A DNA stretch of 64,000 nt, taken from positions 372,001 to 436,000 of the forward strand of contig NZ_JAPEOR010000002.1 of the NCBI RefSeq assembly GCF_026341125.1, given 5' to 3'. Of this stretch, positions 14,661 to 29,034 are shown in pieces; position 1 is the first letter of the stretch, and each line of letters begins with the position of its first letter. This DNA is from Streptomyces sp. NBC_01142. GTDB lineage: Bacteria; Actinomycetota; Actinomycetes; Streptomycetales; Streptomycetaceae. The notes under the pieces were generated by a model. It saw only the letters and a list, made by a program, of their open reading frames with translations, was not told the DNA's origin and made no database searches. The translations under genes were made by a program, and so were the position numbers.

Positions 14661-14805
14661 TGACCGTGGAGCCAGAGCCGGCGAAGCGGACAGTAATGGC
14701 AAGCAACGGAACCAAGGTCGTCCAGATGGACGCTTACCGACCGGAACCGCCCGCCCATTCCAACCCGTTCCGCGCTCTGCTCTGATCGCTCGAACAAACC
14801 AAAGA

Positions 14806-14835
14806 AACGCCCCTGCTGTGATCGGCAGGGGCGTT
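14806..14835. terminator. 11-bp stem downstream of the zinc-ribbon gene
   Basis: AACGCCCCTGC (14806-14816) pairs with 14825-14835 over an 8-base loop, with AACAAAC and GTTTGTT extending it imperfectly. It lies 12 bp after the stop of the leftward gene ending at 14847 and probably ends the element's small-gene transcript. Confidence 0.8.
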
Positions 14836-14846
14836 CGTTTGTTGGA

Positions 14847-15029: not shown

Positions 15030-15038
15030 GACGACTCC

Positions 15039-15248
15039 CTACGCCGTGACGTCGAACTCCCCCAGCTTGGCACCAGGAAGGAACTCCGCCCACTCCACGG
15101 CGGTGAACTCGACCGTCTGGCCGCTCACGGAGTTGCGGACCATCACCTTGCCGGGAACGTTGGTGGCGACCTCGACACAGCGGGGGTCGTTGTTGTTGTA
15201 CTGGCACACACTGGACGTGCGGAACTCGAACTCGGGAACTGCGGTCAT
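15039..15248 (-). CDS. DUF397 domain protein
   Basis: A 69-residue protein with the full DUF397 pattern: FRTSSVC, DPRCVEVATNVPGKVMVRNS, TVEFTAVEWAEFLPGAKLGEF. In Streptomyces DUF397 proteins are partners of XRE/DUF5753 regulators, and such pairs influence development and antibiotic production (for example the WhiJ/BldB-related sets). The matching XRE gene lies 720 bp upstream on the same strand. The ATG at 15248 has AAAGGGA at about 9 bases. The pair has two unrelated small genes inserted between its members, less usual than direct adjacency. Confidence 0.9.
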   Translation of the reverse strand: MTAVPEFEFRTSSVCQYNNNDPRCVEVATNVPGKVMVRNSVSGQTVEFTAVEWAEFLPGAKLGEFDVTA

Positions 15249-15357
15249 CGTGCCTATCCCTTTCGCCGTACGTACGGGGAATCGGTCCCCGCGCCGCCGT
15301 GCAACCCGCCCCGACCGCTCGACCTGTCCAGGGTTTCCACCGCCGGGGCGGGGGCCT

Positions 15358-15582
15358 CTACTCAGCGCGGACCACCATGGCGAACGACGTACGAATGTGC
15401 CGAAAACCAGCGTGCCCGGACCGCCCCGTGTGGCTCATGCACTCGACATCGACAGGCGCCGGGTCGTCAGAAGGCGTCGCCTTCCATGTGCAGTGCAGGC
15501 ACTCGGCCTCAAAGGTCACGTCCGTATCCGGGTGCTCGGTGATCCTGTGCATCACGTACCGCATAGCCGTTCTGATGCTCAC
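15358..15582 (-). CDS. DUF7848-like small protein
   Basis: A 74-residue protein (GTG start, reading SIRTAMRYVMHRITEHPD) with the conserved AECLHCTWKA, VECMSHTGRSGH and SFAMVVRAE blocks of a short actinobacterial family common in Streptomyces regulatory clusters. The Cys and His residues suggest zinc binding. Its start overlaps the stop of the 15579-15881 gene by 4 bp (GTGA), indicating translational coupling. Function unknown. Confidence 0.75.
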   Translation of the reverse strand: MSIRTAMRYVMHRITEHPDTDVTFEAECLHCTWKATPSDDPAPVDVECMSHTGRSGHAGFRHIRTSFAMVVRAE

Positions 15583-15881
15583 AGCCCACCCCTACGGCTC
15601 CGCGCGTTGGCCTCGGCAACTCTGCTGCTCAGTCCCTCTGTCGGCCTATTCGGCGGGGCCTTGTAGTCAGGACACTTCGGGCTCCCGCACTCGCACCGAG
15701 GCCAGCGCAAGGTCGAACTGGGCGCCAGGTCGGCGCCTTCGGGGCCAGGGTCGCTCTTCTGCACCATGAGCACTCCGCCTACGCCGAATGCTCCGGAGAG
15801 GCGGGAGAGGAACTGCCGGGCCTCACCGCTGCCCAGATGATCAGTTGATTCGGCGTCGTGCATCCTGCCTTCGCTCGCCAT
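15579..15881 (-). CDS. Small hypothetical protein with Cys-containing motif
   Basis: 100 residues, starting MASEGRMHDAESTDHLG, with CECGSPKCPDYKAPP near residues 63-77 that looks like a metal-binding knuckle. No family is recognised. GGGAGG lies 8 bases before the ATG at 15881, and the 3' end is coupled to the next gene by a 4-bp overlap, so it is probably expressed. The 90 bp between it and the XRE stop codon may hold a promoter. Confidence 0.6.
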   Translation of the reverse strand: MASEGRMHDAESTDHLGSGEARQFLSRLSGAFGVGGVLMVQKSDPGPEGADLAPSSTLRWPRCECGSPKCPDYKAPPNRPTEGLSSRVAEANARSRRGGL

Positions 15882-15971
15882 GGCCTGCCCTCCCCGGTGA
15901 CTCCGCTATGTCAAGGACGGTAGGGAGACGGGCAGTTGCCAGTCCATGATGTTGCACGGGATTGCACGCGA

Positions 15972-16820
15972 TCACTCGATGGAGTTCATGGCGGCTGTGA
16001 TCAGTGCGCGGGCTTTTGCTCCGTAGACAGCCAAGTCGGCCAACTCCCCGAACGTGTCGGCGTACATGGCTACCTCGCTGGGCTGAGTGATCGTGAGGTA
16101 GCCGGAAACCAACTCGACGTTGACCTGTGCCGTGTCATAGATCCAAAACCCTTCGACCGGCCAGCGCTCCCGATCCGGCCTCATGGGCACAACTCCCAAG
16201 CTGACATTGGGAAGCGAGGCAATTGAGATCAGGTGGCCAAGCTGCCCGGACATGACCTCAGCGCCGCCGATACCGGACCGGATCACGGACTCCTCAACGA
16301 GGAATGCGAACCGCCGGTCACCTTCGTACAGCACCCGCTGGCGCTCCATACGAACGGCCACCGCTTCGGCCACATCGTCCACCAGACCGCGCCGTCGCTG
16401 AATGGCTTGCAAGGCTGCCGTCGTGTACGGCTGCGTCTGGATCATGCCGGGCACGAGCCACGAGGAGTAAGAACGAAAGCGTCGGGTCCGCTGATACAGC
16501 GGTAGGCGGGCCTCCTGCGCCTGCTTAAGCCCGGCCCGCTCCATGCGCCGCCAGCCGACCCACATCCCCTCGGCGGTCCGAAGCATGGCAATCAGGTCCT
16601 CGGCCTGGCCATCGGCCCCGCACGCCCGGCACCACGCCCGAAGGTCCTCAGCGGACGGGGGTGTCCGGCCGTTCATGATCCGAGAGGACTTGGACGGGCT
16701 CCACTCGCAGCGTGCGGCAATGTCGCGCCCGGTCAGCCCGGCATCCCGGCACAGCTCCGCGAGTCGGTCCGCGAGAGCTTGCCGGGCCTGCTGGGCACTG
16801 GAAGATGCAGAGATAGCCAT
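15972..16820 (-). CDS. XRE-family regulator with DUF5753 effector domain
   Basis: A 282-residue transcription factor. Residues 12-70 form the helix-turn-helix (LAELCRDAGLTGRDIAARCE then WSPSKSSRIMNG). The rest is DUF5753, with YSSWLVPGMIQTQPYTTAAL, VAVRMERQRVL and FWIYDTAQVNVELVSGYLTI. This class works with DUF397 proteins, present 720 bp downstream. It lies 17 bp after the DUF6879 gene and belongs to the element's leftward transcription unit. Target sites are unknown. Confidence 0.92.
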   Translation of the reverse strand: MAISASSSAQQARQALADRLAELCRDAGLTGRDIAARCEWSPSKSSRIMNGRTPPSAEDLRAWCRACGADGQAEDLIAMLRTAEGMWVGWRRMERAGLKQAQEARLPLYQRTRRFRSYSSWLVPGMIQTQPYTTAALQAIQRRRGLVDDVAEAVAVRMERQRVLYEGDRRFAFLVEESVIRSGIGGAEVMSGQLGHLISIASLPNVSLGVVPMRPDRERWPVEGFWIYDTAQVNVELVSGYLTITQPSEVAMYADTFGELADLAVYGAKARALITAAMNSIE

Positions 16821-16837
16821 GGTGCGTGTTCGTCAGT

Positions 16838-17368
16838 TCAGCTCGGCCGGTACTCCGCGTGCGGGATCGCACGTTCCCACGCCGCCTCATACGCCATGGC
16901 GTACTGCTTGGCGAGCGCCGGATCGTGACAGACCTCCATGCGCGGGCCGGTCCACTGACCGTCACCGCTGAAGTGGTGAAGGATCAAGGTCTGTTCGTCC
17001 ATGACCCAGCCGTCCAGCACAGGGAGCAGCAGATCACGGGCGCGAGAGCGAGGCAGCCAACGCACGTCCTCCCCCGCTGCGACGTTCGTGAACGTGCCGT
17101 CGTACTCATACCGCACGTAGTCGCTCAGCGGCTCGGAGACAACGCGCAGCCGCCGCATGACCACGCCTCGGCCGGTCGTCTCGGCCACGACGTCCAGCCA
17201 TGACCGCCACCACGACTCGCGGTCGTTCGGGTCGTACCGGTGCCCGTGCTGCCAGCGGAGGAACTCGGGGTCGTCCCTCATGTAGCTGTCCCGCATCTCA
17301 AGGTGCATCGCTGAGCGCTGCGCCATTGCGAGAGCTTCACGTACCGCTGTTGCCACCGTTGACCTCAC
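16838..17368 (-). CDS. DUF6879 family protein
   Basis: A 176-residue protein with the family features: a helix with SAMHLEMRDSY, ESWWRSWLDVVAETTGRGVVMRRLRVV, WLPRSRARDLLLPVLDGWVMDE and LILHHFSGDG. DUF6879 genes accompany XRE/DUF397 regulators in Streptomyces; their biochemical role is unknown. The GTG at 17368 keeps the conserved N-terminal helix and overlaps the upstream gene by 32 bp; an ATG at 17326 would give a 162-residue form starting just after that gene. Confidence 0.85.
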   Translation of the reverse strand: MRSTVATAVREALAMAQRSAMHLEMRDSYMRDDPEFLRWQHGHRYDPNDRESWWRSWLDVVAETTGRGVVMRRLRVVSEPLSDYVRYEYDGTFTNVAAGEDVRWLPRSRARDLLLPVLDGWVMDEQTLILHHFSGDGQWTGPRMEVCHDPALAKQYAMAYEAAWERAIPHAEYRPS

Positions 17369-17603
17369 TGTCGGGGCGGGGGATGAACTGGAGCATGTTT
17401 GCGGGCAGCCGGATCACGGTCTCGTGCTCCGGAACGTCGGTCGAGTGGCCCGGCACCGAGCCGACTTCCTGCGCCTGACGGACGGTCGCCTCGTCCGCCT
17501 TCCATGACTGGATGATCAGGTCTCCGGTCGTGTCGTCGAGCCAGATCGTGGGCGAGCCGTCGTCCGGGGTGTTCGGCCAAATCCCGAGGAACTTTAGGGC
17601 CAT
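17337..17603 (-). CDS. Small hypothetical protein preceding DUF6879
   Basis: 88 residues, starting MALKFLGIWPNTPDDGSPT. It has an acidic beta-rich first half (IWLDDTTGDLIIQSWKAD), a helix and the conserved HETVIRLPANMLQFIPRPD end. Homologous short proteins precede DUF6879 in many Streptomyces regulator cassettes. The ATG at 17603 has GAGGAG at 6 bases and was preferred to an upstream start that would add a non-conserved leader. It is the first gene of the element's unit; its promoter must lie in 17604-17844. Confidence 0.8.
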   Translation of the reverse strand: MALKFLGIWPNTPDDGSPTIWLDDTTGDLIIQSWKADEATVRQAQEVGSVPGHSTDVPEHETVIRLPANMLQFIPRPDSEVNGGNSGT

Positions 17604-17844
17604 TGGGCACTCCTCTAGCGAGTGGGTTGCACCAGCGTGCACGAGCCTCACGCTTCCGGCTGATCAGGGCAAGAGGGGAGCGGACGGCTCGGGCAGTTGG
17701 CCACGTGACCAACGCATGACCAACACCGGCCAGGAACGGGCAGAAACAGCAGGTGAGCATGACCAATCGCCTCAAGGTCCAAGGGGCCTCAGAGGGTGTG
17801 TTTCCGCAGGTCAGCTAACTAATGAGCTGGCGCCCGAGTGGAGA

Positions 17845-17870
17845 GTTCAAGTCCCCCCTCGGACACCAGC
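17845..17870 (+). repeat. attR: second copy of the 26-bp tRNA-Leu 3' sequence
   Basis: Identical to 14154-14179. Only T arm, acceptor 3' strand and CCA are present, so it is not a tRNA gene. It overlaps the 3' end of the leftward adenosine-kinase-like gene, whose stop codon lies inside it. Confidence 0.9.
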
Positions 17871-18851
17871 AAGATCCCCACGGAATCCCGTGGGGATCTT
17901 TGTGTATTCCTGGGTGCCGTGTGTCTCCAGTACGACCGCGGCGAGGGCGCAGCCGAAGCGGGCCGCCCGCTTGTGCGGCCACCCCCGTGCGACGCCCGCG
18001 AGGAAGCCGGCCCGGAAAGCGTCGCCCGCGCCGGTCGGGTCGGCGACGGTGTCCGGCGGGACGGCGGGTACGCGCACTGGCGGGGCGCCGGAGCCCGCCA
18101 GTCGGACACCGTCCGCGCCCAGCGTGGTGATCCAGGTGCCGACCCGGCCCAGCACCTCCCGCTCGCTCCATCCCGTCCGCTCGCGCAGCAGCGCGGCCTC
18201 GTAGGCGTTGGTGAAGAGGAAGCGGGCGCCGTGCACCAGCCGACGGGTCTGCGGGCGGTCCAGTCCGGCGAGTTGCTGGGAGGGGTCTGCCGCGAAGGGA
18301 AGCCCGAGGGACCGGCAGGCCTCGGTGTGCCTGAGCATCGCCTCGGGGTCGTCGGCGCCGATGAGGACGAGGTCGAGACCTCCGGTGCGCCGGGCGACCG
18401 CGGCGAGGTCGATCTCGCGGGCCTCGGCCATGGCGCCGGCGTAGAAGGTGGCGATCTGGTTCTGGTCGGTGTCCGTGGTGCAGACGAAGCGTGCGGTGTG
18501 CAGGGTTTCGCTGATACGGACCGAGGCGGTGTCGACGCCGACGGCCCGCAGGCGGGCGCCGTGGTCGGCGAAGTCCGCGCCGACGGCTCCGACGAGGGTG
18601 GGGCGATGCCCGAGGACGGCCAGACCGTACGCGATGTTGGCGGCCACTCCGCCCTGGTGGATCTCGAGCCGGTCGGCGAGGAAGGAGAGCGAGACATGCC
18701 GGAGCTGGTCGGCGAGGAGCTGGTCGGTGAAGCGGCCGGGGAAGGTCATCAGATGGTCGGTGGCGATGGAGCCGGTGACGGCGATCCGCATGCCGGGCCG
18801 GACGTCGGCCGGCACGTTGAGCCGGACGTCGGACGGGGTCTCGGATCGCAT
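17847..18851 (-). CDS. PfkB-family kinase resembling mycobacterial adenosine kinase, altered C-terminus
   Basis: From MRIAVTGSIATDHLMTFPGR onward the sequence follows M. tuberculosis adenosine kinase closely: LEIHQGGVAANIAYGLAVLG, ISETLHTARFVCTTD, ADPSQQLA, LFTNAYEA, and the PfkB signature DPTGAGDAFRAGFL with the catalytic Asp. It would make AMP from adenosine, the by-product of SAM-dependent methylation, matching its place behind metK. The ATG at 18851 follows the metK stop by one base (coupled start, 334 residues); 18791 would give the classical N-terminus (314). After GTQEY the usual 25-30 residue tail is replaced by KIPTGFRGDLAGVRGGT, encoded by the hairpin at 17871-17900 and the att repeat. 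Activity is uncertain. Confidence 0.85.
   Translation of the reverse strand: MRSETPSDVRLNVPADVRPGMRIAVTGSIATDHLMTFPGRFTDQLLADQLRHVSLSFLADRLEIHQGGVAANIAYGLAVLGHRPTLVGAVGADFADHGARLRAVGVDTASVRISETLHTARFVCTTDTDQNQIATFYAGAMAEAREIDLAAVARRTGGLDLVLIGADDPEAMLRHTEACRSLGLPFAADPSQQLAGLDRPQTRRLVHGARFLFTNAYEAALLRERTGWSEREVLGRVGTWITTLGADGVRLAGSGAPPVRVPAVPPDTVADPTGAGDAFRAGFLAGVARGWPHKRAARFGCALAAVVLETHGTQEYTKIPTGFRGDLAGVRGGT
17871..17900. terminator. 13-bp hairpin next to attR, probable original tRNA-Leu terminator
   Basis: AAGATCCCCACGG (17871-17883) pairs with 17888-17900 over a 4-base loop, followed by TGTGTATT. In the chromosome before integration it would have directly followed tRNA-Leu. It now also encodes part of the kinase C-terminus on the other strand. 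Confidence 0.75.
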
Positions 18852-18852
18852 G

Positions 18853-20016
18853 TCAGATTCCCGCCGCCCGGCGCAGGGCGTCCGCACGGTCGGTGCGTTC
18901 CCAGGTGAAGTCGGGGAGTTCGCGGCCGAAGTGTCCGTACGCAGCCGTCCGCGCGTAGATGGGGCGCAGCAGGTCGAGGTCGCGGATGAGCGCGGCCGGG
19001 CGGAGGTCGAAGACCTCGGTGACGGCCTTTTCGATGACGGGCTGGGCGACCACCGCGGTCTCGAAGGTCTCGACGAACAGGCCCACGGGTTCGGCGACGC
19101 CGATGGCGTACGCGACCTGGACCTCGCAGCGGCGGGCGAGTCCGGCCGCGACCACGTTCTTGGCGACCCAGCGCATCGCGTACGCCGCGCTGCGGTCCAC
19201 CTTGGACGGGTCCTTGCCGGAGAACGCGCCGCCCCCGTGGCGGGCCATCCCACCGTACGTATCGACGATGATCTTCCGGCCGGTCACTCCCGCATCGCCC
19301 ATGGGACCGCCGATCTCGAACCGCCCCGTCGGGTTGACCAGCAGGCGGTAGCCGTCGGTCTCCAGCTTGGTTCCCTCGTCGGCCAGTTCGCCCAGGACGT
19401 GTTCCACGACCGAGCGGCGGATGTCGGGGGTGAGCAGGGTGTCCAGGTCGATGCCCGGGGCGTGCTGCGAGGAGACGACGACGGTGTTGAGCCGGGACGG
19501 GCGGCGGCCCAGGTATTCGACAGTCACCTGGGTCTTGCCGTCGGGGCGCAGATAGGGGACGGTCCCGTCCCCGCGGACCTCCGCGAGACGGCGCGCGAAG
19601 CGGTGCGCGAGGTGGATCGGCAGGGGCATCAGCTCCGGGGTCTCGTCGCAGGCGTACCCGAACATCAGGCCCTGGTCGCCCGCTCCCCCGGTGTCGACGC
19701 CCTGCGCGATGTCCGGCGACTGCGCGCCGATAGACACCGAGACCCCGCACGAGGCTCCGTCGAAGCCCTTCGAGGAGGAGTCGTAGCCGATCTCGAGGAT
19801 CTTGTTCCGTACCAGGGTGGGCACGTCGGCGTGGGCGGTGGTGCTGACCTCGCCCGCGATATGCACCTGGCCGGTGGTGATCAGGGTCTCGATGGCGACC
19901 CTGGCGTGCGGGTCGTCCGCGAGGAGGGCGTCGAGCAGGGTGTCGCTGATCTGGTCGGCGATCTTGTCGGGGTGGCCCTCGGTGACGGACTCCGAGGTGA
20001 ACAGACGACGTGACAT
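18853..20016 (-). CDS. metK: S-adenosylmethionine synthetase (extra, cluster-linked copy)
   Basis: A 387-residue MAT that makes SAM from methionine and ATP. All key motifs are present: [13 protein letters not shown] at the N-terminus, [35 protein letters not shown], and [19 protein letters not shown]. The ATG at 20016 starts the canonical [14 protein letters not shown]; the frame continues upstream through a tandem repeat that is not coding. The housekeeping metK of Streptomyces normally lies near primosome and pyrimidine genes (from memory), so this looks like a second, dedicated copy. It is preceded by the CPBP gene (73-bp gap) and followed after one base by the adenosine-kinase-like gene. 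Confidence 0.95.
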
Positions 20017-20033
20017 CAACTCATCCCATCGGT

Positions 20034-20087
20034 GGTCGGGCTGTGGTGAGTGGTCGGGCTGTGGTGAGTGCTCGGACTGCGGTGCGT
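20034..20087. repeat. 18-bp tandem repeat, three units, in the metK leader
   Basis: Two identical units GGTCGGGCTGTGGTGAGT (20034-20051, 20052-20069) and a variant at 20070-20087, filling the gap between the CPBP stop codon and metK. Could be a regulator-binding array or simply expanded spacer. Confidence 0.8.
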
Positions 20088-20089
20088 GC

Positions 20090-20812
20090 TCAGAGCGGGA
20101 CGGCGACGGCCCCGAGCAGCAGGAGATTGCAGGCCCCCTGCGCGCATGCGCAGGCGAGGGCGGATCCGGTGACGGCACGGCAGACGCCGAGCGCCAGACC
20201 CATCAGAAAGACGGAGGGCAGTACGCCGCAGATCACTCTGAGGTTCAGCGGGTTGAGGCCGTAGTCGCCCAGGTGCACGAGCGACCAGCCGAGCGCGGTC
20301 ACGACGATCGCCGTGTAGGTGCCGCGCTGTTGCTCGACGGCCCGGTACAGGACGCCGCGGTAGCAGACCTCCTCGACGACGGGGACCAGGACGCCGAGGC
20401 ACAGCAGCATCGCCGCCGTGCCCAGCATGGGGACGCCCGGCACCAGGTCCTCGAAGAGCCGGGGGACCCACACGGTCCAGTTGTCGTCGCCGTCGCCGAA
20501 GGCCGCCCGGGTGGCGAAGTACGTCTGTGCGTACACCAGCGCGACCAGCGTCGTGCCCACCACCGCGGGGAGCGGGGCGAACCGGCACACGCCCGCCGCC
20601 GCCCACTCCTGGCGGGGCAGTGCGAGCAGGACGGCGGCGCTCAGCGCGACGGAGAGCACCATCAGCGGGAAGGCGAACGCGCCGGCGACCCGGACCACCG
20701 CGAGCACCGCGAAGAGCGCGGCGGCCGAGGCGAGCGGGAAGGCCGCATGGTGGCGGCGCAGCCGGGCGAGCGCGCCGGGACGGGCCTGCGCCCGGTGCTT
20801 CGTGGTGGCCAT
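20090..20812 (-). CDS. CPBP-family intramembrane glutamic endopeptidase homologue
   Basis: A 240-residue polytopic membrane protein (about 7-8 hydrophobic segments) of the CPBP/Rce1 family. Motif 1 is [15 protein letters not shown] (EExxxR), motif 2 is [13 protein letters not shown]. The third motif, usually HxxxN/B, reads AQGACN with Gln for His, so catalysis may be altered. Family members process prenylated or small membrane peptides, or confer bacteriocin immunity. It follows the MMPL gene by 6 bp and belongs to the leftward operon; maturation or immunity for the cluster product is speculation. Confidence 0.85.
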
Positions 20813-20818
20813 GGCGGA

Positions 20819-23392
20819 TCACCCCGGCGCCTTCTGCCGCGACCGGCCGAAGCTGGGCATCCACCAGTTGTACTTGCGGAAGAGCAGCAGGGTCGCCGGC
20901 ACGAAGAGCATGCGGATCAGGGTGGCGTCGAGCAGGACGGCGAGGCCGAGCCCGGCTCCGTACTCCTGGAGCATCAGGGTGGAGGACAGGGCCATCGTGC
21001 CGAGGCTTCCGGCCATGACCAGGCCGGCGGCGTTGATCACGCGCCCGGTGTCCACCACCGCCTGAAGGGTGGCTTCCTCCTGGGACAGGCCGCTGCGGGC
21101 CAGGTCGCGTACGCGGGTGACGAGGAAGATCTCGTAGTCCATCCCGAGGCCCATCATCAGGACCGTGAGGAAGATCGGCAGATCGTCGATGATCGCCTCG
21201 CCGCGCCAGTGGTGGAAGATCAGTACGGTCAGGCCCACCGCCCAGACATTGCTCAGCATGATCGTGCCGATCAACCGGATCGGGACGAGCAGCGAGCGCA
21301 GCGCGATGACCAGCATCACGAACACGCCGATACTGACGAGCACGACCATCTGCCAGAAGCTGCGGCTCAGGGCGGAGCCGTACTGGCGGTCCACCTGGGT
21401 CGCGCCGCCGACATCCAGTTCTCCGACGGTGCTGCGCGCCGCGGCGGTCACTTTCTCCACGCGCTGTACGGCCGCGGCCGCGCCGGGTGAGTACGGATCG
21501 TCCTCGAGGGCGACGACGAACCGCAGGGAGCCGTCGCGGGCGACGTAGTCGTCGCGCAGGCTCTGGGGCATGGCTGCGACCTCGTCCGCCGTCCACCGGG
21601 TGCCGAAGGGATGGGTGGCGGAGTCGACGGAGGCGACGCCCTTCGTCGCGGCGAGCTGGTCGGTCAGCCGGGCCACCGCCTGCTGTCCGTCGGCCGAGAG
21701 TGCTCCCTTGTCCACGGTCCCGGCCGCGGAGGCGCCGACCACGACGGTGGGAAGCACCGCGGCGTCCCCCCACCGTTCGGCGACCGTCTCGAAGCCGTCC
21801 CGGGAGTCGGTGGCGGGGCTGAGTGCGACGGGGTCCGCCGTGGAGCGGCTGTCGGCCACGACCAGTGCGAACGGCACGGTCACGGCGAGGAATACGACGA
21901 CGATCGCCACCTTGCGGCGGCGGGCGAACTCGGCGGTGCGGCGCAGATGGCGCCCCACGGCGCCGGTGTGTTCCAGGTCGGACAGCGGTGCGCGTCCCAG
22001 GGCGAAGAAGCGGTCGCCGAGCAGGACCAGCAGGCAGGGGGTGAGAGTGAGGGCGGCGGCCAGCACGATGGGGATGCCGAGGAGCCCGCCGTAGCCGAGC
22101 GGCGGAATCCAGTCGACCGGCGACAGCAGCGTCGCACCGAAGGCCAGTGCCACGGCGATGGCGGCCAGCAGCATGCTCTCGCCCGCGTGCACCGTGGCCT
22201 GGACGGCGGCTTCGCGGGGGGCGCGGCCCGCCAGCCGCTCCTGCCGGTATCGGGAGGAGAGCAGCATGCTGTAGTCGACGCCCGCGCCCAGCATCACGAA
22301 CGTCATGATGGTGACGGTGAACTGAGTGAGCGTCACTTCCTTGCCGAGCAGATAGAGCGCCGCCTGGCTGACGTTCATCGCGAGCCCGATGACGACCAGG
22401 GTGAGGACGGCGGGCACGATGGCGCGGAAGAAGAGCAGCAGGACGACGAAGATGATGACGTACGCCACCGACTCCATCAGAGCGTTGTCGGACTCGGCCT
22501 TCTCGTAGGTGTCGTGGATGAGTGCGAGCTCACCGGTGACATGGACCTCGGCCTGTCCGCCCAGGCCCGCCTTGTCGAGGAGTTCGCCGGCGGAGTCGCG
22601 CAGGCCCTCGACATCGGGGTCGTTGCCCGCCTCGGCGGTGTAGCTGACGGATGCCAGTGCCGCTGTGCCGTCCTCGGCGATCAGTCGCGCGGCGGCTTCC
22701 TCCGGTACGTCGAGCGGGAAGTTCTGCCAGTCGGTTCCGGCCGCGAACGCCCCTGCGATACGGGAGACGGCCGCGGCGTCCCGGGCGGTGACGGCCGCGC
22801 GCGCCGGGCCTTCCAGCGGGGCCGGTACCCGGCCCTGGGCGATCTCCCGGTCGATGAATTCGCGTCTGGATCCGGCATCCCCCGCCGGTGCCTGTGCGTC
22901 TGCTCTCGCGCGGATACCGGTGAGGAACTGCGCGGTCGCGTCCCGGTGGAGGGTGAAGGCGGACGAGGAGCGCTCAACCTCCCCGTCCTTCTGCAGGGCG
23001 GCGATGGTGGTGTCCAACTCGGCCAGGAACCGGCGCACTTCGGGTGTGTTGACCCGGTCGGCTTCGAGGACGAGGACGACCTCGCGCTGCGAGCGGTGCG
23101 GGAAGGACGTGGCCGTCAGTTCCTCGGCGCGTGCGCTGCTGGTGCCGGGCACGACCTTGGACGCGCCCTGGTCGGTGAGGACGGAGGTCAGCTGGAGGGC
23201 GAAGGGCGTACAGAGCGCGATCAGCACCGCCCACACCAGGATCACCGTCTTGGGGCGGGAGGTGATCCGCTGCGCGAATCGGAGCAGTACGCGCTGGACT
23301 GCGGCCGGGGGCGGCCCCGTTGGCCGCGTACCGCCCGGCCCGGTGTCCGGGGCGGGCGCGGCCGGCAGGCCTTGCTTGGTCGGGTTCGTCAT
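20819..23392 (-). CDS. MMPL-family (RND superfamily) exporter
   Basis: An 857-residue inner-membrane transporter with the two-fold MMPL layout. TM1 (TVILVWAVLIALCTPFAL) precedes a large periplasmic loop, five helices follow, then a second loop and five helices. Both proton-relay signatures are present: GAGVDYSMLLSSRYRQE in the first half and GLGMDYEIFLVTRVRDL in the second. Actinobacterial MMPLs export lipids, glycolipids and lipid-linked metabolites. Its start overlaps the methyltransferase stop by 4 bp, so it is an integral part of the operon and probably exports the product. An N-terminal Pro/Gly-rich segment of about 30 residues is cytoplasmic. Confidence 0.95.
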   Translation of the reverse strand: MTNPTKQGLPAAPAPDTGPGGTRPTGPPPAAVQRVLLRFAQRITSRPKTVILVWAVLIALCTPFALQLTSVLTDQGASKVVPGTSSARAEELTATSFPHRSQREVVLVLEADRVNTPEVRRFLAELDTTIAALQKDGEVERSSSAFTLHRDATAQFLTGIRARADAQAPAGDAGSRREFIDREIAQGRVPAPLEGPARAAVTARDAAAVSRIAGAFAAGTDWQNFPLDVPEEAAARLIAEDGTAALASVSYTAEAGNDPDVEGLRDSAGELLDKAGLGGQAEVHVTGELALIHDTYEKAESDNALMESVAYVIIFVVLLLFFRAIVPAVLTLVVIGLAMNVSQAALYLLGKEVTLTQFTVTIMTFVMLGAGVDYSMLLSSRYRQERLAGRAPREAAVQATVHAGESMLLAAIAVALAFGATLLSPVDWIPPLGYGGLLGIPIVLAAALTLTPCLLVLLGDRFFALGRAPLSDLEHTGAVGRHLRRTAEFARRRKVAIVVVFLAVTVPFALVVADSRSTADPVALSPATDSRDGFETVAERWGDAAVLPTVVVGASAAGTVDKGALSADGQQAVARLTDQLAATKGVASVDSATHPFGTRWTADEVAAMPQSLRDDYVARDGSLRFVVALEDDPYSPGAAAAVQRVEKVTAAARSTVGELDVGGATQVDRQYGSALSRSFWQMVVLVSIGVFVMLVIALRSLLVPIRLIGTIMLSNVWAVGLTVLIFHHWRGEAIIDDLPIFLTVLMMGLGMDYEIFLVTRVRDLARSGLSQEEATLQAVVDTGRVINAAGLVMAGSLGTMALSSTLMLQEYGAGLGLAVLLDATLIRMLFVPATLLLFRKYNWWMPSFGRSRQKAPG

Positions 23393-24321
23393 ACGACCGA
23401 TGCCTCCTCGCCCACGGCCCGGCGGCGGGCGGCCGCGCTGTCGGCCTGTTTGGTGCCGGTGACCACGACGAAGGTGTGCTGGATGTCGAGGACGCCGTGC
23501 CGGGCGAGGTGTTCACGCAGTCCGGCGGCGATACGGTCCAGGACCAGCTGTTCGCGGTCGCTGTCGACGGCGGTCTTGAAACCGGCCGCGGCCCCGGAGC
23601 GCTGGACCCATTCGACGGCTTGCTCGGGGGTGTGGGCGGGGATGGTCTGTGCACCGTCGCGTCGGCTGTCGACCGTCAGCCCCGCCTTGATGAACCAGCG
23701 CGCGACGGTCGCCGCGTCCTTGGGGAGCGTGACCCGGATCAGGCCGGTCAGCAGGGAGGGGTCGTCGGCGAAGATCCGCTCGAGGCGTTCGGTGAGCGCC
23801 CGGTGGGCGTCGGCACGGGTCTCGATGACGACGACGCGGCCGCCGGGGCGCAGTACCCGCTCGATCTGGGTGAGCAGCCGGGTCGGCTTGGTGTAGCAGA
23901 TGGCCCAGCCGACGACGACCAGGTCGGCGCTGTCCGAGGGCCGGGACTCGATGAAGGTGTCCATGTCGCCCTCGGAGAGCTCCACGTGCAGACCGGGGGC
24001 GGCGTCGGCCAGGGGAAGGACCTTGTCCTTGGCGACCTGCAGCATCCCGGGCGACTTGTCGACGGCGTACACCGCGCCGCTGCCGTTCAGCCGCCGTACG
24101 ACCTCCTCCGTCAAGTGGCCGGTGCCGCAGGCCAGTTCCACGACAGTGTCCCCGGGGGTGACGGGCACGGTGTCGAGGGCCTCTATCGAGTGCTTGCCCA
24201 TCACCGGGCTGAAGAAGGTGTCGTAGTCCCCACTGGCGGCGTCGTAGTCCGCCGTGGGATCGGCATGTGCCTTGTTGATCGCGAGGCGCAGTGCTCGTGC
24301 GGCCAGTCGTACGCGTGACAT
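23389..24321 (-). CDS. Class I SAM-dependent methyltransferase
   Basis: A 310-residue Rossmann methyltransferase. Motif I is VVELACGTGHLTEEV (residues about 60-74), the acidic end of strand 2 is in VYAVDKSPGML, motif II/III are in DLVVVGWAICY and VLRPGGRVVVIETR. A C-terminal part of about 100 residues (helical, HTPEQAVEWVQRSGAAAG) is likely the substrate cap. The substrate is not predictable; an amine or hydroxyl of the oxoamine synthase product is the natural guess. It lies 12 bp after the small membrane protein and overlaps the MMPL gene by 4 bp. Confidence 0.92.
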   Translation of the reverse strand: MSRVRLAARALRLAINKAHADPTADYDAASGDYDTFFSPVMGKHSIEALDTVPVTPGDTVVELACGTGHLTEEVVRRLNGSGAVYAVDKSPGMLQVAKDKVLPLADAAPGLHVELSEGDMDTFIESRPSDSADLVVVGWAICYTKPTRLLTQIERVLRPGGRVVVIETRADAHRALTERLERIFADDPSLLTGLIRVTLPKDAATVARWFIKAGLTVDSRRDGAQTIPAHTPEQAVEWVQRSGAAAGFKTAVDSDREQLVLDRIAAGLREHLARHGVLDIQHTFVVVTGTKQADSAAARRRAVGEEASVV

Positions 24322-24333
24322 GTGCGGGCTCCT

Positions 24334-24861
24334 TCATGAGGACGAACGGGCAGGGGCGGCCGAGCGGGCGAGGTGGAGCAGTGCGCCCGTACAGGCGAGG
24401 ACGCTTGCGGCGGCGCGGGCCTCGGCCAGGCAGAGGGCGCCGGCCGCGCATCCGGCTGCCGCGCCGGCGAGCAGCACGGTGATGTGTACGGCGGCCGGGC
24501 CGGGGCCGGCCGTTCCCCGGGCCGGTTCGGCGGCCGGCCCGGGGAACAGGAGGGAGACCGCGACGAGCGCGGTGGCGAATGCGCAGACCGCGAGGACGGT
24601 CAGGGTGGCGGCCGTCTGCTGCGGGCGCGGACACGGTACGGCCGCGCCGAGCAGCAGCAGACCCGCCGCGACCGGCATCCGCCGGGTGCGGTCCTCGAGC
24701 CGGTCCGCGGCCGCGCGGGCGGTCAGGGCGCCCGCGGCGAGCGCCAGGACCAGTACCAGGAACGTCAGCCCCACGAGGCTCGGGGTGGCGACCGGCGCCG
24801 GGAACGCGACCGGGGACACCCCCGCCGCGATCCCCGTGACCGGCAGGGCTGTGCGGGTCAT
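24334..24861 (-). CDS. Small polytopic membrane protein of unknown function
   Basis: 175 residues with about five hydrophobic segments rich in Ala, Leu and Val (LVGLTFLVLVLALAAGALTA, AAGLLLLGAAVPC, LTVLAVCAFATALVAVSLLF, AVHITVLLAGAAAGCAAGAL, VLACTGALLHL). No family motif is recognised. The ATG at 24861 overlaps the oxoamine synthase stop (ATGA), so co-translation is likely. It could be a transport partner of the MMPL protein or a membrane anchor for the methyltransferase; both are guesses. Confidence 0.75.
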   Translation of the reverse strand: MTRTALPVTGIAAGVSPVAFPAPVATPSLVGLTFLVLVLALAAGALTARAAADRLEDRTRRMPVAAGLLLLGAAVPCPRPQQTAATLTVLAVCAFATALVAVSLLFPGPAAEPARGTAGPGPAAVHITVLLAGAAAGCAAGALCLAEARAAASVLACTGALLHLARSAAPARSSS

Positions 24862-26078
24862 GCCGACGTCACCCCGGACGGCACGCATACGCGGGGGCGG
24901 ATGAGGTCCGCCTCGGCCGCGAACGCCTCGATCACCCGGTCCAGTTGTCCGACGCTGTGGGTGGCCATGAAGCTCGTACGCAGCCGGGGCGAGGCGGCGG
25001 GCGGGAGGACCGGGTTCACATAGACGCCCCGGTCGATGAGGCGGTGCCAGGCGGAGAGCGTCTCGAGGGCGCCGGCGGTCGGTATGGGGATGATCGGTGT
25101 GGTGCTCGCCCCGGTCTCCACTCCGGCTTCGGCGAGTCCGCGCCGTATGTATGCGGCGTTGGCCTGTACGGCGTCGACCAGTTGGGGCTCCTCGCGCAGG
25201 ATACGCAGCGCGGCCAGCGCGGAGGCCGTGTTGGCGGGGGTCATGGACGCGCTGAACATCAGGCTGCGGGCATGGTGTTTGAGGTAGTGGATCGCCTCCT
25301 CGCTGCCCGCGACGGCACCGCCGAGGGAGGCGAGGGACTTGCTGAAGGTGACCGTGATCAGGTCCACCTGGTCGGTGAGCCCGAAGTGGGCGGCGGTGCC
25401 GCGGCCGGAGGCGAGGACGCCGAGACCGTGTGCGTCGTCCAGTACCAGCCGTGCGCCGTACCTCCGGCACACGGCCACGATCGCGGGAAGGTCGCAGAGA
25501 TCGCCCTCCATGGAGTAGACGCCGTCGACGACGACCAGGCGGGGGGCGTCGTCGGGCAGCCCCTCCAGGGCCTGGGCGAGCGCGGTCGCGTCGTTGTGCG
25601 GGAACCAGCGCACCTTGGCGCCGCTGAGCCGGCATCCGTCGACGAGGGAGGCGTGCGCGTCCTTGTCGACCAGGACGTAGTCACGGGGCGTCAGCAGGGC
25701 GGCGATCACCCCGAGGTTGGTCTGGTATCCGGTCGTCATCACCAGCGCTGCGGGCTTGCCCAGGAAGCGGGCGAGTTCGTCCTCCAGCTGGAGGTGGAGA
25801 TCGATGTTGCCGTTGAGGAAGCGGGAGCCGGTGCAGGAACTCCCGTACACATCGAGTGCGTCGCGGGCCGCGGCCCGCACCCGGGGATCGGCGGTCAGGC
25901 CGAGGTAGTTGTTGGAGCCGCACATGATCAGTTCGCGGCCACCGCGCCGTACGGTCGCGCCCTCGTGGCCCTCGAGCGGCAGGAAGTAGGGATAGAGACC
26001 GCTCTCGATCAGTTCTGCCGCGACGGTGAAGGCCGCGAACCGTGAAAAGACATCCGTCTGCTCTGCTATCGCATTCAC
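24858..26078 (-). CDS. Alpha-oxoamine synthase (SPT/KBL/BioF/ALAS family), PLP-dependent
   Basis: A 406-residue fold-type I PLP enzyme that condenses an amino acid with an acyl-CoA to give an alpha-amino ketone with loss of CO2. Signatures are GSNNYLGL, SCTGSRFLNGNIDLHLQLE, DAHAS (His142 stacks on PLP), DDAHGLGV (Asp215/His217) and the Schiff-base lysine Lys247 in VTFSKSLASLGG. The length and motifs resemble serine palmitoyltransferase and CqsA more than BioF; there are no biotin or heme genes nearby. The GTG at 26078 has AAGGGG 8 bases upstream; an upstream in-frame ATG lacks a site. It is the first gene of the seven-gene leftward operon and likely sets the scaffold. Confidence 0.92.
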   Translation of the reverse strand: MNAIAEQTDVFSRFAAFTVAAELIESGLYPYFLPLEGHEGATVRRGGRELIMCGSNNYLGLTADPRVRAAARDALDVYGSSCTGSRFLNGNIDLHLQLEDELARFLGKPAALVMTTGYQTNLGVIAALLTPRDYVLVDKDAHASLVDGCRLSGAKVRWFPHNDATALAQALEGLPDDAPRLVVVDGVYSMEGDLCDLPAIVAVCRRYGARLVLDDAHGLGVLASGRGTAAHFGLTDQVDLITVTFSKSLASLGGAVAGSEEAIHYLKHHARSLMFSASMTPANTASALAALRILREEPQLVDAVQANAAYIRRGLAEAGVETGASTTPIIPIPTAGALETLSAWHRLIDRGVYVNPVLPPAASPRLRTSFMATHSVGQLDRVIEAFAAEADLIRPRVCVPSGVTSA

Positions 26079-26116
26079 GAAGAATTCCCCTTGCAGCTGG
26101 AATGCGCGCGCGACTG

Positions 26117-26157
26117 GTCCGGCCATGACCCACGGCCGGACTTTTCCCGCGCGGGAA
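26117..26157 (-). promoter_or_regulatory. Two palindromes in the leader of the oxoamine synthase operon
   Basis: A perfect palindrome TTCCCGCGCGGGAA (26144-26157) and a stem GTCCGGCC/GGCCGGAC (26117-26124 with 26134-26141, 9-base loop) lie 39-79 bp upstream of the GTG. Either could be an operator or an RNA leader structure. On the opposite strand the stem is followed by TTTT and could stop antisense transcription. Confidence 0.5.
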
Positions 26158-26664
26158 GGAGCGATTCACGCAGCATGAATACAGCACCTGGCATTACCGC
26201 TGACCATGCGGGCAGGAATGGCCGCACACATGAGGCGGGTGAAGGTGATCACGTGAACCGAAAGGGAACCCACATCACAGGATGATGATGGATTCAAGGT
26301 CGCCGTTGACCTGGGCAGGCCTGTCCGCAGGTCGTTGGCGACCGCTCCGGTACAGGGCTGCAAGAAGCACCCGGGGGCGGGCCGAGGGGCGCGTTACGGC
26401 ACTCCCTGCGGCCCGCCGAAAGTCGGGTGCGGAATCTAAGTTCTCGGTTTCTTCGCCATTCAAGTCCCCCGATCGACAAGCCGTGGAACCGCCTCAAGGG
26501 CAGTAACTAATTCAGCGAATGGACCGTAACCATATCCGGCCATTCATGTCAACCAACTCTTGACAGCGCCCCGCCAATCCACCTGGATTTAACAATTCCG
26601 CTTTCCGTGAGTGCGCCCCCGCGCCGGTCGAACACGCCGTCCGTACAAGATGCTACGCTGCATT
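26158..26664. other. About 500-bp divergent intergenic region, lower G+C, no gene seen
   Basis: The region between the leftward biosynthetic operon and the rightward TetR gene is visibly richer in A/T than its surroundings, and no frame has coding character. It must carry promoters for both units. A consensus -35 (TTGACA, 26560-26565) has only a weak -10 candidate. TTCAAGTCCCCC at 26459-26470 equals 12 bases of the tRNA-Leu att repeat (see findings). Confidence 0.5.
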
Positions 26665-26682
26665 CGACCGTCCAGACGGTCG
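26665..26682. promoter_or_regulatory. TetR operator: CGACCGTC-CA-GACGGTCG
   Basis: An 8+2+8 perfect inverted repeat 27 bp upstream of the TetR start, directly after a possible -10 (TACGCT, 26654-26659). Position and symmetry fit autoregulation by the TetR protein encoded next, as in QacR-type efflux systems. Confidence 0.7.
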
Positions 26683-26709
26683 GTCCTGTGAAGCGGTACC
26701 GGAAGACGG

Positions 26710-27258
26710 GTGGGACAGGTGCGCGATCGGCTCCTCGACGCGGTGGAACGGCTCCTGGTGAAGGGCGGCGTGGACGCCGTCCGGCTGGACGCCGTGGCAT
26801 CGGAGGCCGGGGTGAGCAAGGGCGGCCTGCTCCATCACTTCCCCAGCAAACGCGCCCTGGTGGAGGGCGTGGTCCAGCGCCTGGTCGAGCGGTTCGAGGC
26901 GGTCCTGCCCGGACCGGACGCGCCGGCCGGCTCGTACACCATGGCCTGGCTCGACGCCTCTGTCCCGCCGGAGTCCCCCGAGGACGGTGACGACCCTCGC
27001 AACGAGGTGCCGGTCGCCCTGCTCGCGGCAGCCGGCGGTCCCGAGGTGCTCGATGTGCTCCAGCGCCACTACCGCACATGGCAGGAGCGCCTCGACGCGG
27101 ACGGGCTGCCGCCCGGCGTCAGCTCTCTGGTCCGGATGGCGGTCGACGGCTGGTGGACGGCGCGCCTGCTCGGGCTCGCCGCACCCCGGGGCGACGCCCA
27201 TGTGCAGCTGCGCCGGCTGGTGAGTGAACTCATCGACCAGGAACGGGAGTCGAGCTGA
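26710..27258 (+). CDS. TetR-family regulator of the adjacent SMR pump
   Basis: A 182-residue repressor. The helix-turn-helix spans about residues 3-48 (LLDAVERLLVKGGVDAVRLD, ASEAGVSKGGLLHHFPSKRA). The C-terminal ligand domain contains a tryptophan-rich stretch (DGWWTARLL). The GTG at 26710 is used; a second GTG three codons on is possible. Its stop overlaps the start of the SMR gene by one base, and a perfect palindrome stands upstream, so it probably controls its own operon and releases on binding a cationic drug or metabolite. Confidence 0.92.
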   Translation: MGQVRDRLLDAVERLLVKGGVDAVRLDAVASEAGVSKGGLLHHFPSKRALVEGVVQRLVERFEAVLPGPDAPAGSYTMAWLDASVPPESPEDGDDPRNEVPVALLAAAGGPEVLDVLQRHYRTWQERLDADGLPPGVSSLVRMAVDGWWTARLLGLAAPRGDAHVQLRRLVSELIDQERESS

Positions 27259-27584
27259 TGGGCATCGTCCTGGTCGCGGGCGCGATCCTCTCGGAGGTGA
27301 TCGCCACCCTGGCGCTGCGGGCCTCGCACGGACTGAGCCGCCTCGGCCCGACCGCCCTGGTGGTCATCGGCTACGGGACGGCGTTCGTCCTGCTCGCGCA
27401 GGCGCTCAAGACCCTGAACGTCGGCCCGGTGTATGCCGTGTGGTCGGGAGTGGGGACGGTCGGCGCCTTCCTCGGCGGAGTCCTCCTGTTCGACGAACCG
27501 GTACGGGCGGCGACGGTCGTGGGTATCGCCCTCGTCGTCCTCGGTGTCGCCGTGATGTATCTGGGCGGCGGAATGGAGCACTGA
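27258..27584 (+). CDS. Small multidrug resistance (SMR/EmrE-type) exporter
   Basis: A 108-residue inner-membrane protein with four helices. It starts MGIVLVAGAILSEVIATLAL, including the membrane-embedded Glu14-equivalent (SEVIAT) that couples protons to drug export. The conserved block GPVYAVWSGVGTVGAFLGG near residues 55-73 and LFDEP follow. SMR proteins act as antiparallel dimers exporting quaternary or guanidinium cations. It is coupled to the TetR gene upstream (TGATG) and to the DUF5360 gene downstream (TGATG). Confidence 0.95.
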   Translation: MGIVLVAGAILSEVIATLALRASHGLSRLGPTALVVIGYGTAFVLLAQALKTLNVGPVYAVWSGVGTVGAFLGGVLLFDEPVRAATVVGIALVVLGVAVMYLGGGMEH

Positions 27585-28093
27585 TGAAGAGCCGTGTCCC
27601 GACGCAGCGTGGCTTCCGGCTGGTCAAGGCGGCGATGCTGGCGACCGACGTCACCTTCCTCCTCTACTGGACGGCCTCGCTCCTCGTCCTCATTCCGCCC
27701 GCGTACGCGTACAAGGACTACGACGACCCGGTGATGAGTGACTGGAACTACTCGTTCCTGCCGCTGGACGTGGCCGCCAGCGCGACCGGGCTCGCCGCGC
27801 TTGTCCTCGTGCGCGGGCGCTGCACGCGCCGGCTTGCCCGTCACCGTCCCCTCTGGCGGCCGCTGATGCTCATCTCCCTGACGCTGACCAGCACCGCAGG
27901 ACTGCAGGCGGTCGTCTTCTGGGCGCTGCGCGGTGACTGGTCCCCGACCTGGTGGATTCCCAACCTTTTCCTGCTGCTGTTCCCCCTCCCCTCGATCGCG
28001 CTGCTGCTCCGGCACGATGTCGGCCCCGGGACCGGGGGCGGGGCCGGGGTTCCGCAGACCTCCGACGCGGTGCGCATACAGTCAGGTCGGTGA
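27584..28093 (+). CDS. DUF5360 family membrane protein
   Basis: A 169-residue protein with four likely membrane helices (TFLLYWTASLLVLIPPAYAY, FLPLDVAASATGLAALVLV, MLISLTLTSTAGLQAVVFWA, WIPNLFLLLFPLPSIALLL), matching a small actinobacterial family of unknown function. The motif YDDPVMSDWNYSF between TM1 and TM2 is typical. It starts on the last base of the SMR stop and ends overlapping the pseudouridine synthase start (GTGA), so the TetR-SMR-DUF5360 unit may read into the RNA-modification gene. Confidence 0.8.
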   Translation: MKSRVPTQRGFRLVKAAMLATDVTFLLYWTASLLVLIPPAYAYKDYDDPVMSDWNYSFLPLDVAASATGLAALVLVRGRCTRRLARHRPLWRPLMLISLTLTSTAGLQAVVFWALRGDWSPTWWIPNLFLLLFPLPSIALLLRHDVGPGTGGGAGVPQTSDAVRIQSGR

Positions 28094-29034
28094 GACGCAG
28101 ACACAAAGCCCCGCCCGCGCCGCTCCCCCAGCGCGACGGGATCGACCCGGTGCGGCTGCGGCTGCCCGCCGACCCGGACGGCGCCTGGGCGACGGTGGGC
28201 GACCATGTCGCCGCGCGGTACGCCGATGCGATCGGGACCGAGCAGGTCGACGCCATGTTCCGGGAGGGGCGCATTGTCGGCGCGAACGGGCCGGTCGGCG
28301 CCGACGAGCCGTACGCCGAAGGGCGCTACCTCTGGTTCCACCGGGACTTCGCCCCCGAGGCACCGGTCCCCTTCGAGGTGCGGATCGTGTACCGGGACGA
28401 GCGCGTGGTGATCGCCGACAAGCCGCACTTCCTGGCCACCACTCCGCGCGGCGGGCACATCACCGAGACGGCGCTGGCCCGGCTGCGTCGCGATCTTGCG
28501 CTGCCTCAGCTGCAGCCCGCACACCGGCTCGACCGGCTGACGGCCGGGCTCACGCTCTTCGTCGTACGGCCCGGGGACCGGGGCGCCTATCAGTCGCTGT
28601 TCCAGGAGCGGCAGGTGCGCAAGGAGTACGAGGCGGTGGCCCCGTACGACCCGGCGGTGGCGCTGCCCCGCACCGTACGCAGCCGGATCGTGAAGGAGCG
28701 CGGGGTGCTGGCCGCCCGCGAGGAGCCGGGCGAACCGAACAGCGAGAGCCGGATCGAGCTGCTGGAGCACCGCGCCGGGCTCGGCCGGTACCGGCTGCTG
28801 CCGGCCACCGGCCGCACCCATCAGCTGCGGGTCCATATGAACAGCCTGGGGCTGCCGATCCTGGACGACCCGCTCTATCCTCTCGTCCGGGAGCCGGAGC
28901 CCGACGACTTCTCCCGTCCGCTTCAACTCCTGGCGAAGGTACTGGAGTTCACCGATCCGGTGACAGGAGAGCCGTTCCGCTTCGAGAGCCGGCTGCGGCT
29001 GGCCCGGTGGTCCCGTCCCACGGCAGGCCACTAA
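28090..29034 (+). CDS. RluA-family 23S rRNA/tRNA pseudouridine synthase
   Basis: A 314-residue enzyme converting uridine to pseudouridine. The catalytic aspartate is in AHRLDRLTAGLTLFV, and YEAVAPYDP, GRTHQLRVHM and LGLPILDDPLYP are the other family motifs. The N-terminal 90 residues form an S4-like or specificity region (EQVDAMFREGRIVGANG). The target base cannot be assigned. The GTG at 28090 overlaps the preceding stop. It is convergent with the MBL hydrolase gene, sharing 4 bp. Confidence 0.93.
   Translation: MRRRHKAPPAPLPQRDGIDPVRLRLPADPDGAWATVGDHVAARYADAIGTEQVDAMFREGRIVGANGPVGADEPYAEGRYLWFHRDFAPEAPVPFEVRIVYRDERVVIADKPHFLATTPRGGHITETALARLRRDLALPQLQPAHRLDRLTAGLTLFVVRPGDRGAYQSLFQERQVRKEYEAVAPYDPAVALPRTVRSRIVKERGVLAAREEPGEPNSESRIELLEHRAGLGRYRLLPATGRTHQLRVHMNSLGLPILDDPLYPLVREPEPDDFSRPLQLLAKVLEFTDPVTGEPFRFESRLRLARWSRPTAGH

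What the first reader, a model, noticed from the sequence alone, without database searches (positions are those of the whole stretch)
17847..26078. Seven-gene operon coupling an alpha-oxoamine synthase and a methyltransferase to its own SAM supply, adenosine salvage and MMPL export
Order on the minus strand: oxoamine synthase, small membrane protein, SAM methyltransferase, MMPL exporter, CPBP protease homologue, metK, adenosine-kinase-like PfkB. Overlaps of 4 bp (24858-24861, 23389-23392), short gaps and a one-base junction metK/kinase show one unit (seen). Oxoamine synthases make alpha-amino ketones from an amino acid and acyl-CoA (SPT, CqsA, BioF family knowledge). The metK and adenosine kinase genes point to heavy methylation. 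A methylated amino-ketone lipid or signal exported by the MMPL protein is my inference. SAH hydrolase is absent, so it must be supplied elsewhere.
Basis: partly seen in the sequence, partly recalled or inferred. Interest (0 to 1): 0.75.

Follow-up and report, generated by a model that had tools for sequence, protein, structure and literature searches.

The report
Methylated aminoketone lipid gene cluster
A soil bacterium carries a rare, conserved gene cluster that probably builds, methylates and exports a fatty amino-ketone, with its own small drug-efflux pump beside it; the product has not been identified.

Summary
In detail: seven same-strand genes lie at 17847-26078 with the stated overlaps. 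The conserved unit is larger and has another core. SPT-like oxoamine synthase, methyltransferase, MMPL and CPBP genes are present in 10 of 10 complete Streptomyces clusters read and 5 of 5 Kitasatospora-like ones; the small membrane ORF was read in 12 of 15. A divergent TetR-SMR-DUF5360 set belongs to it: DUF5360 was found in 4 of 295 Streptomyces genomes, the four with the cluster or its relic. A 16-bp palindrome beside tetR is exact in 12 of 15 clusters, one mismatch in 3. Priestia megaterium plasmids combine TetR, SMR, oxoamine synthase, methyltransferase and DUF5360 too. The genome has 4 metK, 3 adoK, 2 sahH. Best reading: a methylated, exported, sphingoid-like alpha-aminoketone with SMR self-protection. 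Product, substrates and methylated atom are inferred.

The parts
24858..26078 (-). SPT-like alpha-oxoamine synthase (PLP)
   Evidence: PF00155; best NCBIfam NF047600 SPT (462 bits, cut-off 640 not reached); best PDB Sphingobacterium SPT (376 bits); active-site residues aligned
24334..24861 (-). Ala/Leu-rich membrane protein (3 predicted TM windows); conserved in position, hardly in sequence
   Evidence: ORF with 3-5 TM windows starting 4 bp inside the oxoamine stop in 12 of 15 clusters (in L120, L037, L041 the frame is open but the start was not read off); only L119 matched in sequence (52%); no Pfam hit
23389..24321 (-). class I SAM methyltransferase of a discrete family
   Evidence: PF13649; 94 proteins at E<=1e-15 among 8000 scored; model pLDDT 89.2 (19-row alignment); generic small-molecule methyltransferase fold
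20819..23392 (-). MMPL-family RND exporter
   Evidence: PF03176 3e-81; best PDB MmpL5 (143 bits)
20090..20812 (-). CPBP/Rce1-like membrane protein; EExxxR kept, Gln where the last motif usually has His (motif recalled)
   Evidence: PF02517 3.3e-16; alignment of window and 14 relatives (AQGxxN in all 15)
18853..20016 (-). metK, S-adenosylmethionine synthetase (one of four copies)
   Evidence: TIGR01034 534 bits (cut-off 309)
17847..18851 (-). adenosine kinase (PfkB), one of three copies
   Evidence: solved adenosine kinase 2pkf 343 bits (from M. tuberculosis, recalled); GAGD motif present
26666..26681 (.). 16-bp palindrome GACCGTCNNGACGGTC, putative TetR operator
   Evidence: 12 of 15 clusters exact, 3 of 15 one mismatch; only exact copy in the 10.1-Mb genome
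26710..27258 (+). TetR-family regulator
   Evidence: PF00440/PF17937; 68-82% identical in the 14 actinobacterial relatives
27258..27584 (+). SMR efflux protein; Ala at the Gdx Trp16 position
   Evidence: PF00893 1.2e-26
27584..28093 (+). YvaD-like DUF5360 membrane protein
   Evidence: PF17314 1.7e-40; 4 of 295 genomes; single copy in the genome

Best explanation
A secondary-metabolite cluster. Step 1 (inferred from family and active site): the SPT-like enzyme condenses a small amino acid, most likely serine (alanine or glycine possible), with a long-chain acyl thioester and releases CO2, giving an alpha-aminoketone. Step 2 (inferred): the UbiE-like methyltransferase methylates it, perhaps on nitrogen; SAM comes from housekeeping metK and, in most Streptomyces clusters, from a private metK, with adenosine kinase clearing adenosine after SAH hydrolysis encoded elsewhere. 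Step 3 (inferred): MMPL, helped by the CPBP and small membrane proteins, moves the amphiphile out. Step 4 (association shown, function inferred): SMR plus DUF5360, made from a divergent unit controlled by TetR at the conserved palindrome, expels product that re-enters or accumulates. I noted no ketosphinganine reductase, acyl carrier protein or ceramide synthase among the genes shared by the clusters, so the product is more likely a free methylated aminoketone than a ceramide.
For: Oxoamine synthase, methyltransferase, MMPL, CPBP, TetR and SMR together in 10 of 10 complete Streptomyces and 5 of 5 Kitasatospora-like clusters. DUF5360 in 4 of 295 Streptomyces, the same four with a close oxoamine gene or its relic. 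Oxoamine synthase, methyltransferase, SMR, DUF5360 and TetR together on two Priestia plasmids. Thirteen oxoamine/methyltransferase pairs among listed proteins share a longest-contig length, reaching Amycolatopsis (my comparison of the lists). SPT catalytic and serine-contact residues kept. Operator conserved. TetR-SMR-DUF5360 also stands without the biosynthetic genes in a 14.3-kb Tsukamurella stretch, as expected of a resistance set.
Against: SPT equivalog cut-off not reached (462 of 640). GTFSKS reads VTFSKS (VTFSKA in two relatives) and Ala79 near the amino-acid side chain is Thr, so the amino acid may differ. The fold search lists methyltransferases of several kinds with query TM-scores of 0.45-0.60 and does not name the methylated atom. 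MMPL, CPBP and kinase were not found in the Priestia clusters, which have an acyltransferase instead. The SMR's best PDB match is the guanidinium exporter Gdx-Clo (67 bits) over EmrE (53.5), and the window protein has Ala for the usual Ser42. The operator lies beside tetR, some 400-600 bp from the oxoamine gene, so control of the biosynthetic operon is not shown. The Streptomyces clusters were picked by their oxoamine gene; of the other 71 loci from that scan none gave a second cluster gene, so the enzyme type itself is far wider than the cluster (108 of 295 Streptomyces have a relative at E<=1e-60).
Confidence: 0.5

Rival explanations
1. A sphingolipid-type pathway: 3-ketosphinganine is made here and completed to a membrane or secreted sphingolipid by enzymes elsewhere; the methyltransferase caps a late intermediate.
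For: Best profile and PDB matches are SPTs; a bacterial oxoamine synthase with SPT activity in a secondary-metabolite cluster is published (PMC12134224, passages read).
Against: No ketosphinganine reductase or ceramide synthase noted among the genes shared by the clusters, though the rest of the genome was not searched for them; rare, patchy distribution unlike a membrane lipid (methyltransferase in 6 of 394 family genomes, own genome included).
Confidence: 0.2
2. CqsA-like: SAM itself is the amino-acid substrate, so metK feeds the oxoamine synthase rather than the methyltransferase (CqsA precedent recalled, not read here).
For: metK is in 7 of 10 Streptomyces clusters.
Against: CqsA-type model scores only 184 of 428 bits; serine-contact residues kept; an adenosine kinase fits SAH recycling rather than the methylthioadenosine that SAM use would give; metK absent from 8 of 15 clusters.
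Confidence: 0.07
3. The TetR-SMR-DUF5360 set is an unrelated resistance operon that merely neighbours a lipid-modifying operon.
For: It stands alone in Tsukamurella, and B. subtilis rings for DUF5360.
Against: Of 295 Streptomyces genomes, DUF5360 was found only in the 4 cluster or relic genomes; the association recurs in another phylum with a different gene order; one palindrome is conserved in 15 of 15 clusters.
Confidence: 0.15

Closest known systems
Sphingobacterium multivorum serine palmitoyltransferase (PDB 3A2B, 8GUH)
   Same: Same family; residues equivalent to Asn52, Ser81, His138, Asp210, His213, Thr241, Ser243, Lys244 kept
   Different: VTFSKS for GTFSKS, Thr for Ala79, below the SPT equivalog cut-off; sits in a methyltransferase/efflux cluster
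SgaAB of Pseudomonas fluorescens MYb115 (PMC12134224, passages read)
   Same: Secondary-metabolite cluster built on an oxoamine synthase with SPT homology
   Different: There a PKS supplies the acyl chain; none was seen in the stretch read around this gene (window 1-34000); here methyltransferase, MMPL and SMR genes
YvaD/YvaE SMR pair of Bacillus subtilis (PMC2716321, passages read)
   Same: SMR gene next to a YvaD-like gene with tetR nearby
   Different: That 2009 survey knew yvaD from Bacilli and Lactobacilli only and no resistance for YvaD; here the set is in actinobacteria and tied to an oxoamine synthase and methyltransferase
SAM-cycle cassette elsewhere in this genome (L116: metK, adoK, methionine-synthase-type, sahH)
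   Same: metK beside adenosine kinase
   Different: The window pair lacks the methionine-synthase and sahH genes and is optional across clusters

Membership tests
Serine palmitoyltransferase | NCBIfam SPT equivalog cut-off | tested here: not met
   NF047600 462 of 640 bits; NF047599 359 of 500
Serine palmitoyltransferase | PLP and serine-binding residues | tested here: met
   eight named residues kept; Ala79 is Thr
Serine palmitoyltransferase | GTFSKS motif | tested here: not met
   VTFSKS in the window (VTFSKA in L037 and L041); GTFSKS in Priestia
Serine palmitoyltransferase | activity with serine and palmitoyl-CoA | not testable with these tools
   needs enzyme assay
BioF / Kbl | profile cut-off and tree position | tested here: not met
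   bioF 355 of 426, glycine C-acetyltransferase 300 of 460; separated from E. coli BioF and Kbl at 100/99, both long branches
CqsA | NCBIfam equivalog cut-off | tested here: not met
   NF005526 184 of 428
MetK | equivalog cut-off, three Pfam domains | tested here: met
Adenosine kinase | kinship to solved enzyme and catalytic Asp | tested here: met
   the Kitasatospora-like kin fail the Asp test
SMR Qac subtype | Gly/Ala at the Trp16 position (PMC7695847, passages) | tested here: met
   Ala in the window and 14 of 14 actinobacterial relatives, Gly in Priestia
SMR Qac subtype | NCBIfam Qac equivalog cut-off | tested here: not met
   NF033137 78.5 of 188 bits
SMR Qac subtype | Ser42, highly conserved among SMRs (PMC7695847) | tested here: not met
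   Ala in the window protein
SMR Qac subtype | transport of quaternary ammonium compounds | not testable with these tools
   needs transport assay

The most novel reading that the evidence does not exclude
The cluster makes a natural quaternary-ammonium or N-methylated fatty aminoketone (a biological antiseptic-like cation), and its SMR-DUF5360 pair is the dedicated exporter of that compound. It would then be a native substrate system for a Qac-like branch of the SMR family, shared by Streptomyces, Kitasatospora and Priestia.
Probability: 0.2. Interest if true: 0.85.

Novelty: new variant of a known kind. Interest (0 to 1): 0.57.

Why it matters
It links an SPT-like enzyme in Gram-positive bacteria with methylation and two exporters, across two phyla. 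It gives a testable handle on what a Qac-like SMR protein and DUF5360 act on in nature: a search of the held papers for DUF5360 or PF17314 returned none. It also shows that the metK/adenosine-kinase pair is an optional add-on.

Tried and rejected
Phylum sample for the methyltransferase: 1 of 396, only the own genome. Order sample around another actinobacterium: 0 of 397, with no genome known to match in it. Rfam over 17000-28500: two matches under their gathering scores, taken as chance. Sigma-70-type scan: none found; terminator-like sites 6 against 2.5 expected. Fold search of the methyltransferase does not decide the methylated atom. First oxoamine tree had badly cut rows (three left out, one 12% filled); replaced after re-extraction, where I also dropped three long rows (L128, L118, Sphingomonas SPT). 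metK tree: the cluster copies are one side of a branch at only 81/80, so a single origin is weakly supported; the own cassette copy was entered with a long false N-terminus, trimmed only by column filtering. Papers: searches for oxoamine synthase or SPT with Streptomyces clusters, SAM recycling, sphingolipids in Actinobacteria and SMR self-resistance gave no title or abstract describing this cluster (listings only unless cited otherwise).

Co-occurrence caution: each drew 295 genomes of the genus; I take them as the same set from matching handles, which is not proven. Three of the four hits share one chromosomal site, so they are not four independent events.
Full report
The seven genes exist as described. 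ORFs and Pfam give: oxoamine synthase 24858-26078, small membrane ORF 24334-24861, methyltransferase 23389-24321, MMPL 20819-23392, CPBP 20090-20812, metK 18853-20016, PfkB 17847-18851, all minus strand, with the two 4-bp overlaps and a one-base metK/PfkB gap. The genome (10.1 Mb, 15 contigs) has four metK, three kinases of this type at E<=1e-10 and two SAH hydrolases. One other metK-adoK pair sits in a fuller SAM-cycle cassette with methionine-synthase-type and sahH genes (L116).

The enzyme. The best NCBIfam model is SPT at 462 bits (cut-off 640), then a second SPT model 359 (cut-off 500) and bioF 355; CqsA-type 184. The best solved relative is Sphingobacterium SPT (376 bits). From passages of PMC10196870 I took residues of that enzyme; those equivalent to Asn52, Ser81, His138, Asp210, His213, Thr241, Ser243 and Lys244 are kept, Ala79 is Thr, and GTFSKS is VTFSKS. 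A tree of 46 rows parts it from E. coli BioF and Kbl (100/99; both long branches). The cluster enzymes lie among actinobacterial and Chloroflexota relatives, with some other actinobacterial oxoamine synthases nested among them, and the Priestia enzyme falls outside that actinobacterial group. So it is SPT-like, not a proven SPT.

Recurrence. Ten complete Streptomyces clusters were read: the window, L119, L035/L120 (one genome), L036, L037, L038, L040, L041, L042, L043; L039 is cut by its contig end and not counted. All 15 have oxoamine synthase, methyltransferase, MMPL, CPBP, TetR and SMR. DUF5360 was recovered in 14 of 15; not in L140. metK and kinase are both present in 7 of 10 Streptomyces clusters and both absent in L119, L036 and L038. 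The five Kitasatospora-like clusters lack metK and keep a kinase 48-50% identical whose GAGD motif has lost its Asp in 5 of 5. A membrane ORF starting 4 bp inside the oxoamine stop holds the second position in 12 of 15, with little sequence similarity; in L120, L037 and L041 my script merged it with upstream frame and the start was not read off. These Streptomyces clusters were found through their oxoamine gene: of the 80 loci, the nine from Streptomyces (L035-L043) showed further cluster genes and the other 71, mostly Chloroflexota and Bacteroidota, showed none.

Rarity and linkage. The methyltransferase was found in 6 of 394 Streptomycetaceae genomes sampled, own genome included, and in 1 of 396 of the phylum, the own genome. 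A protein search gives 94 relatives at E<=1e-15 (the 8000 candidates sharing most words were scored), reaching Amycolatopsis, Actinocrispum, Dactylosporangium and a Bacillus. Thirteen pairs between the 120 listed oxoamine synthases (of 8000) and these 94 share a longest-contig length (my comparison by eye of the lists), which suggests but does not prove linkage. On two Priestia megaterium plasmids the records show TetR, SMR, oxoamine synthase (45%), methyltransferase (38-39%), an acyltransferase and YvaD/DUF5360 side by side; the Priestia TetR did not match the window's TetR by tblastn.

The divergent set. DUF5360 was found in 4 of 295 Streptomyces genomes at E<=1e-8: the window's, G174, G213 and G285. 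These are the genomes with oxoamine synthases 75% identical or more, whereas oxoamine relatives at E<=1e-60 are in 108 of 295. In G285 only relics remain at this site: a DUF5360 end, an oxoamine end, a metK end and part of the kinase. If four labels fell at random among 295 genomes, the same four would recur about once in 3e8 (hand calculation); shared ancestry of three of them makes the true figure weaker. The same set stands without biosynthetic genes in a 14.3-kb Tsukamurella stretch. A 2009 survey (PMC2716321, passages) lists ubi and acp/fab genes in the operons of 28.6% each of 7 yvaD loci; whether these are clusters like this one is unknown.

Control. A palindrome GACCGTCNNGACGGTC lies in the tetR/oxoamine gap in 15 of 15 clusters, exact in 12, one mismatch in L136, L137 and L139. 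It is the only exact copy in the genome. With one mismatch allowed there are 26 sites against 9 for the reversed control, so the relaxed motif is not specific; in the window, 21 matches with up to 3 mismatches against 12.6 expected. It lies 16-109 bp from the aligned tetR start and about 400-600 bp from the oxoamine start.

Efflux. The SMR protein has Ala at the position that is Trp in Gdx and Gly or Ala in Qac proteins (PMC7695847, passages; alignments). Against a simple Qac label: NCBIfam Qac scores are below cut-off, Gdx-Clo outranks EmrE by bits, and the usual Ser42 is Ala. MMPL is nearest to MmpL5/MmpL4 among solved proteins. The CPBP protein keeps EExxxR but has Gln for the last motif His in 15 of 15 actinobacterial sequences (the motif standard is recalled).

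Reading. The gene set fits making, methylating and exporting an amphiphilic aminoketone, with SMR-DUF5360 as self-protection. Shown: family membership at the stated levels, synteny, co-occurrence, operator conservation. Inferred: substrates, methylated atom, export roles, TetR binding and its control of the biosynthetic operon. The metK/adoK pair is best seen as a yield-raising accessory; its absence from several clusters and the inactive-looking Kitasatospora-like kinase argue that it does not define the pathway.

Noticed in passing
L136-L140 (Kitasatospora-like), kinase at the end of the operon: The adenosine-kinase homologue is kept in 5 of 5 clusters but its catalytic Asp (GAGDAF) is Gly: a conserved, apparently inactive kinase.
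   Followed up: partly
window 14090-17881: The 3' end of tRNA-Leu(gag) is repeated at 17845, inside the end of the adenosine kinase gene; between lie an integrase fragment and a DUF5753 regulator: probably the remnant of an integrated element.
   Followed up: partly
L116 (own genome, contig C1 about 2.57-2.59 Mb): A second metK-adoK pair in a fuller SAM cycle (methionine-synthase-type, sahH) beside P450, TENA and ABM-domain genes, perhaps another biosynthetic cluster.
   Followed up: partly
L124 9100-11400 (G285): Relic of the cluster: ends of DUF5360, oxoamine synthase and metK and part of the kinase lie together at the same chromosomal site next to tRNA-Leu.
   Followed up: partly
L035 18658-19587, similar ORFs in L036, L037, L038, L040: A reductive-aminase-like oxidoreductase (PF21761, tested in L035) follows the operon on the same strand in one Streptomyces group; part of the pathway or mere neighbour is unclear.
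   Followed up: no
L137 8318-9613: A transposase-like ORF (label recalled) sits between the small membrane gene and the methyltransferase gene, with the other cluster genes present.
   Followed up: no
window 11208-12606 (minus strand): Chaplin-like secreted proteins, one with collagen-like GEPGEPG repeats and an LAQTG stretch near its end (label recalled, sequence seen).
   Followed up: no
G000 contig C4 52239-53414 (L118): A second oxoamine synthase in this genome, 46% identical, with none of the other cluster genes matched in the 19 kb around it.
   Followed up: no
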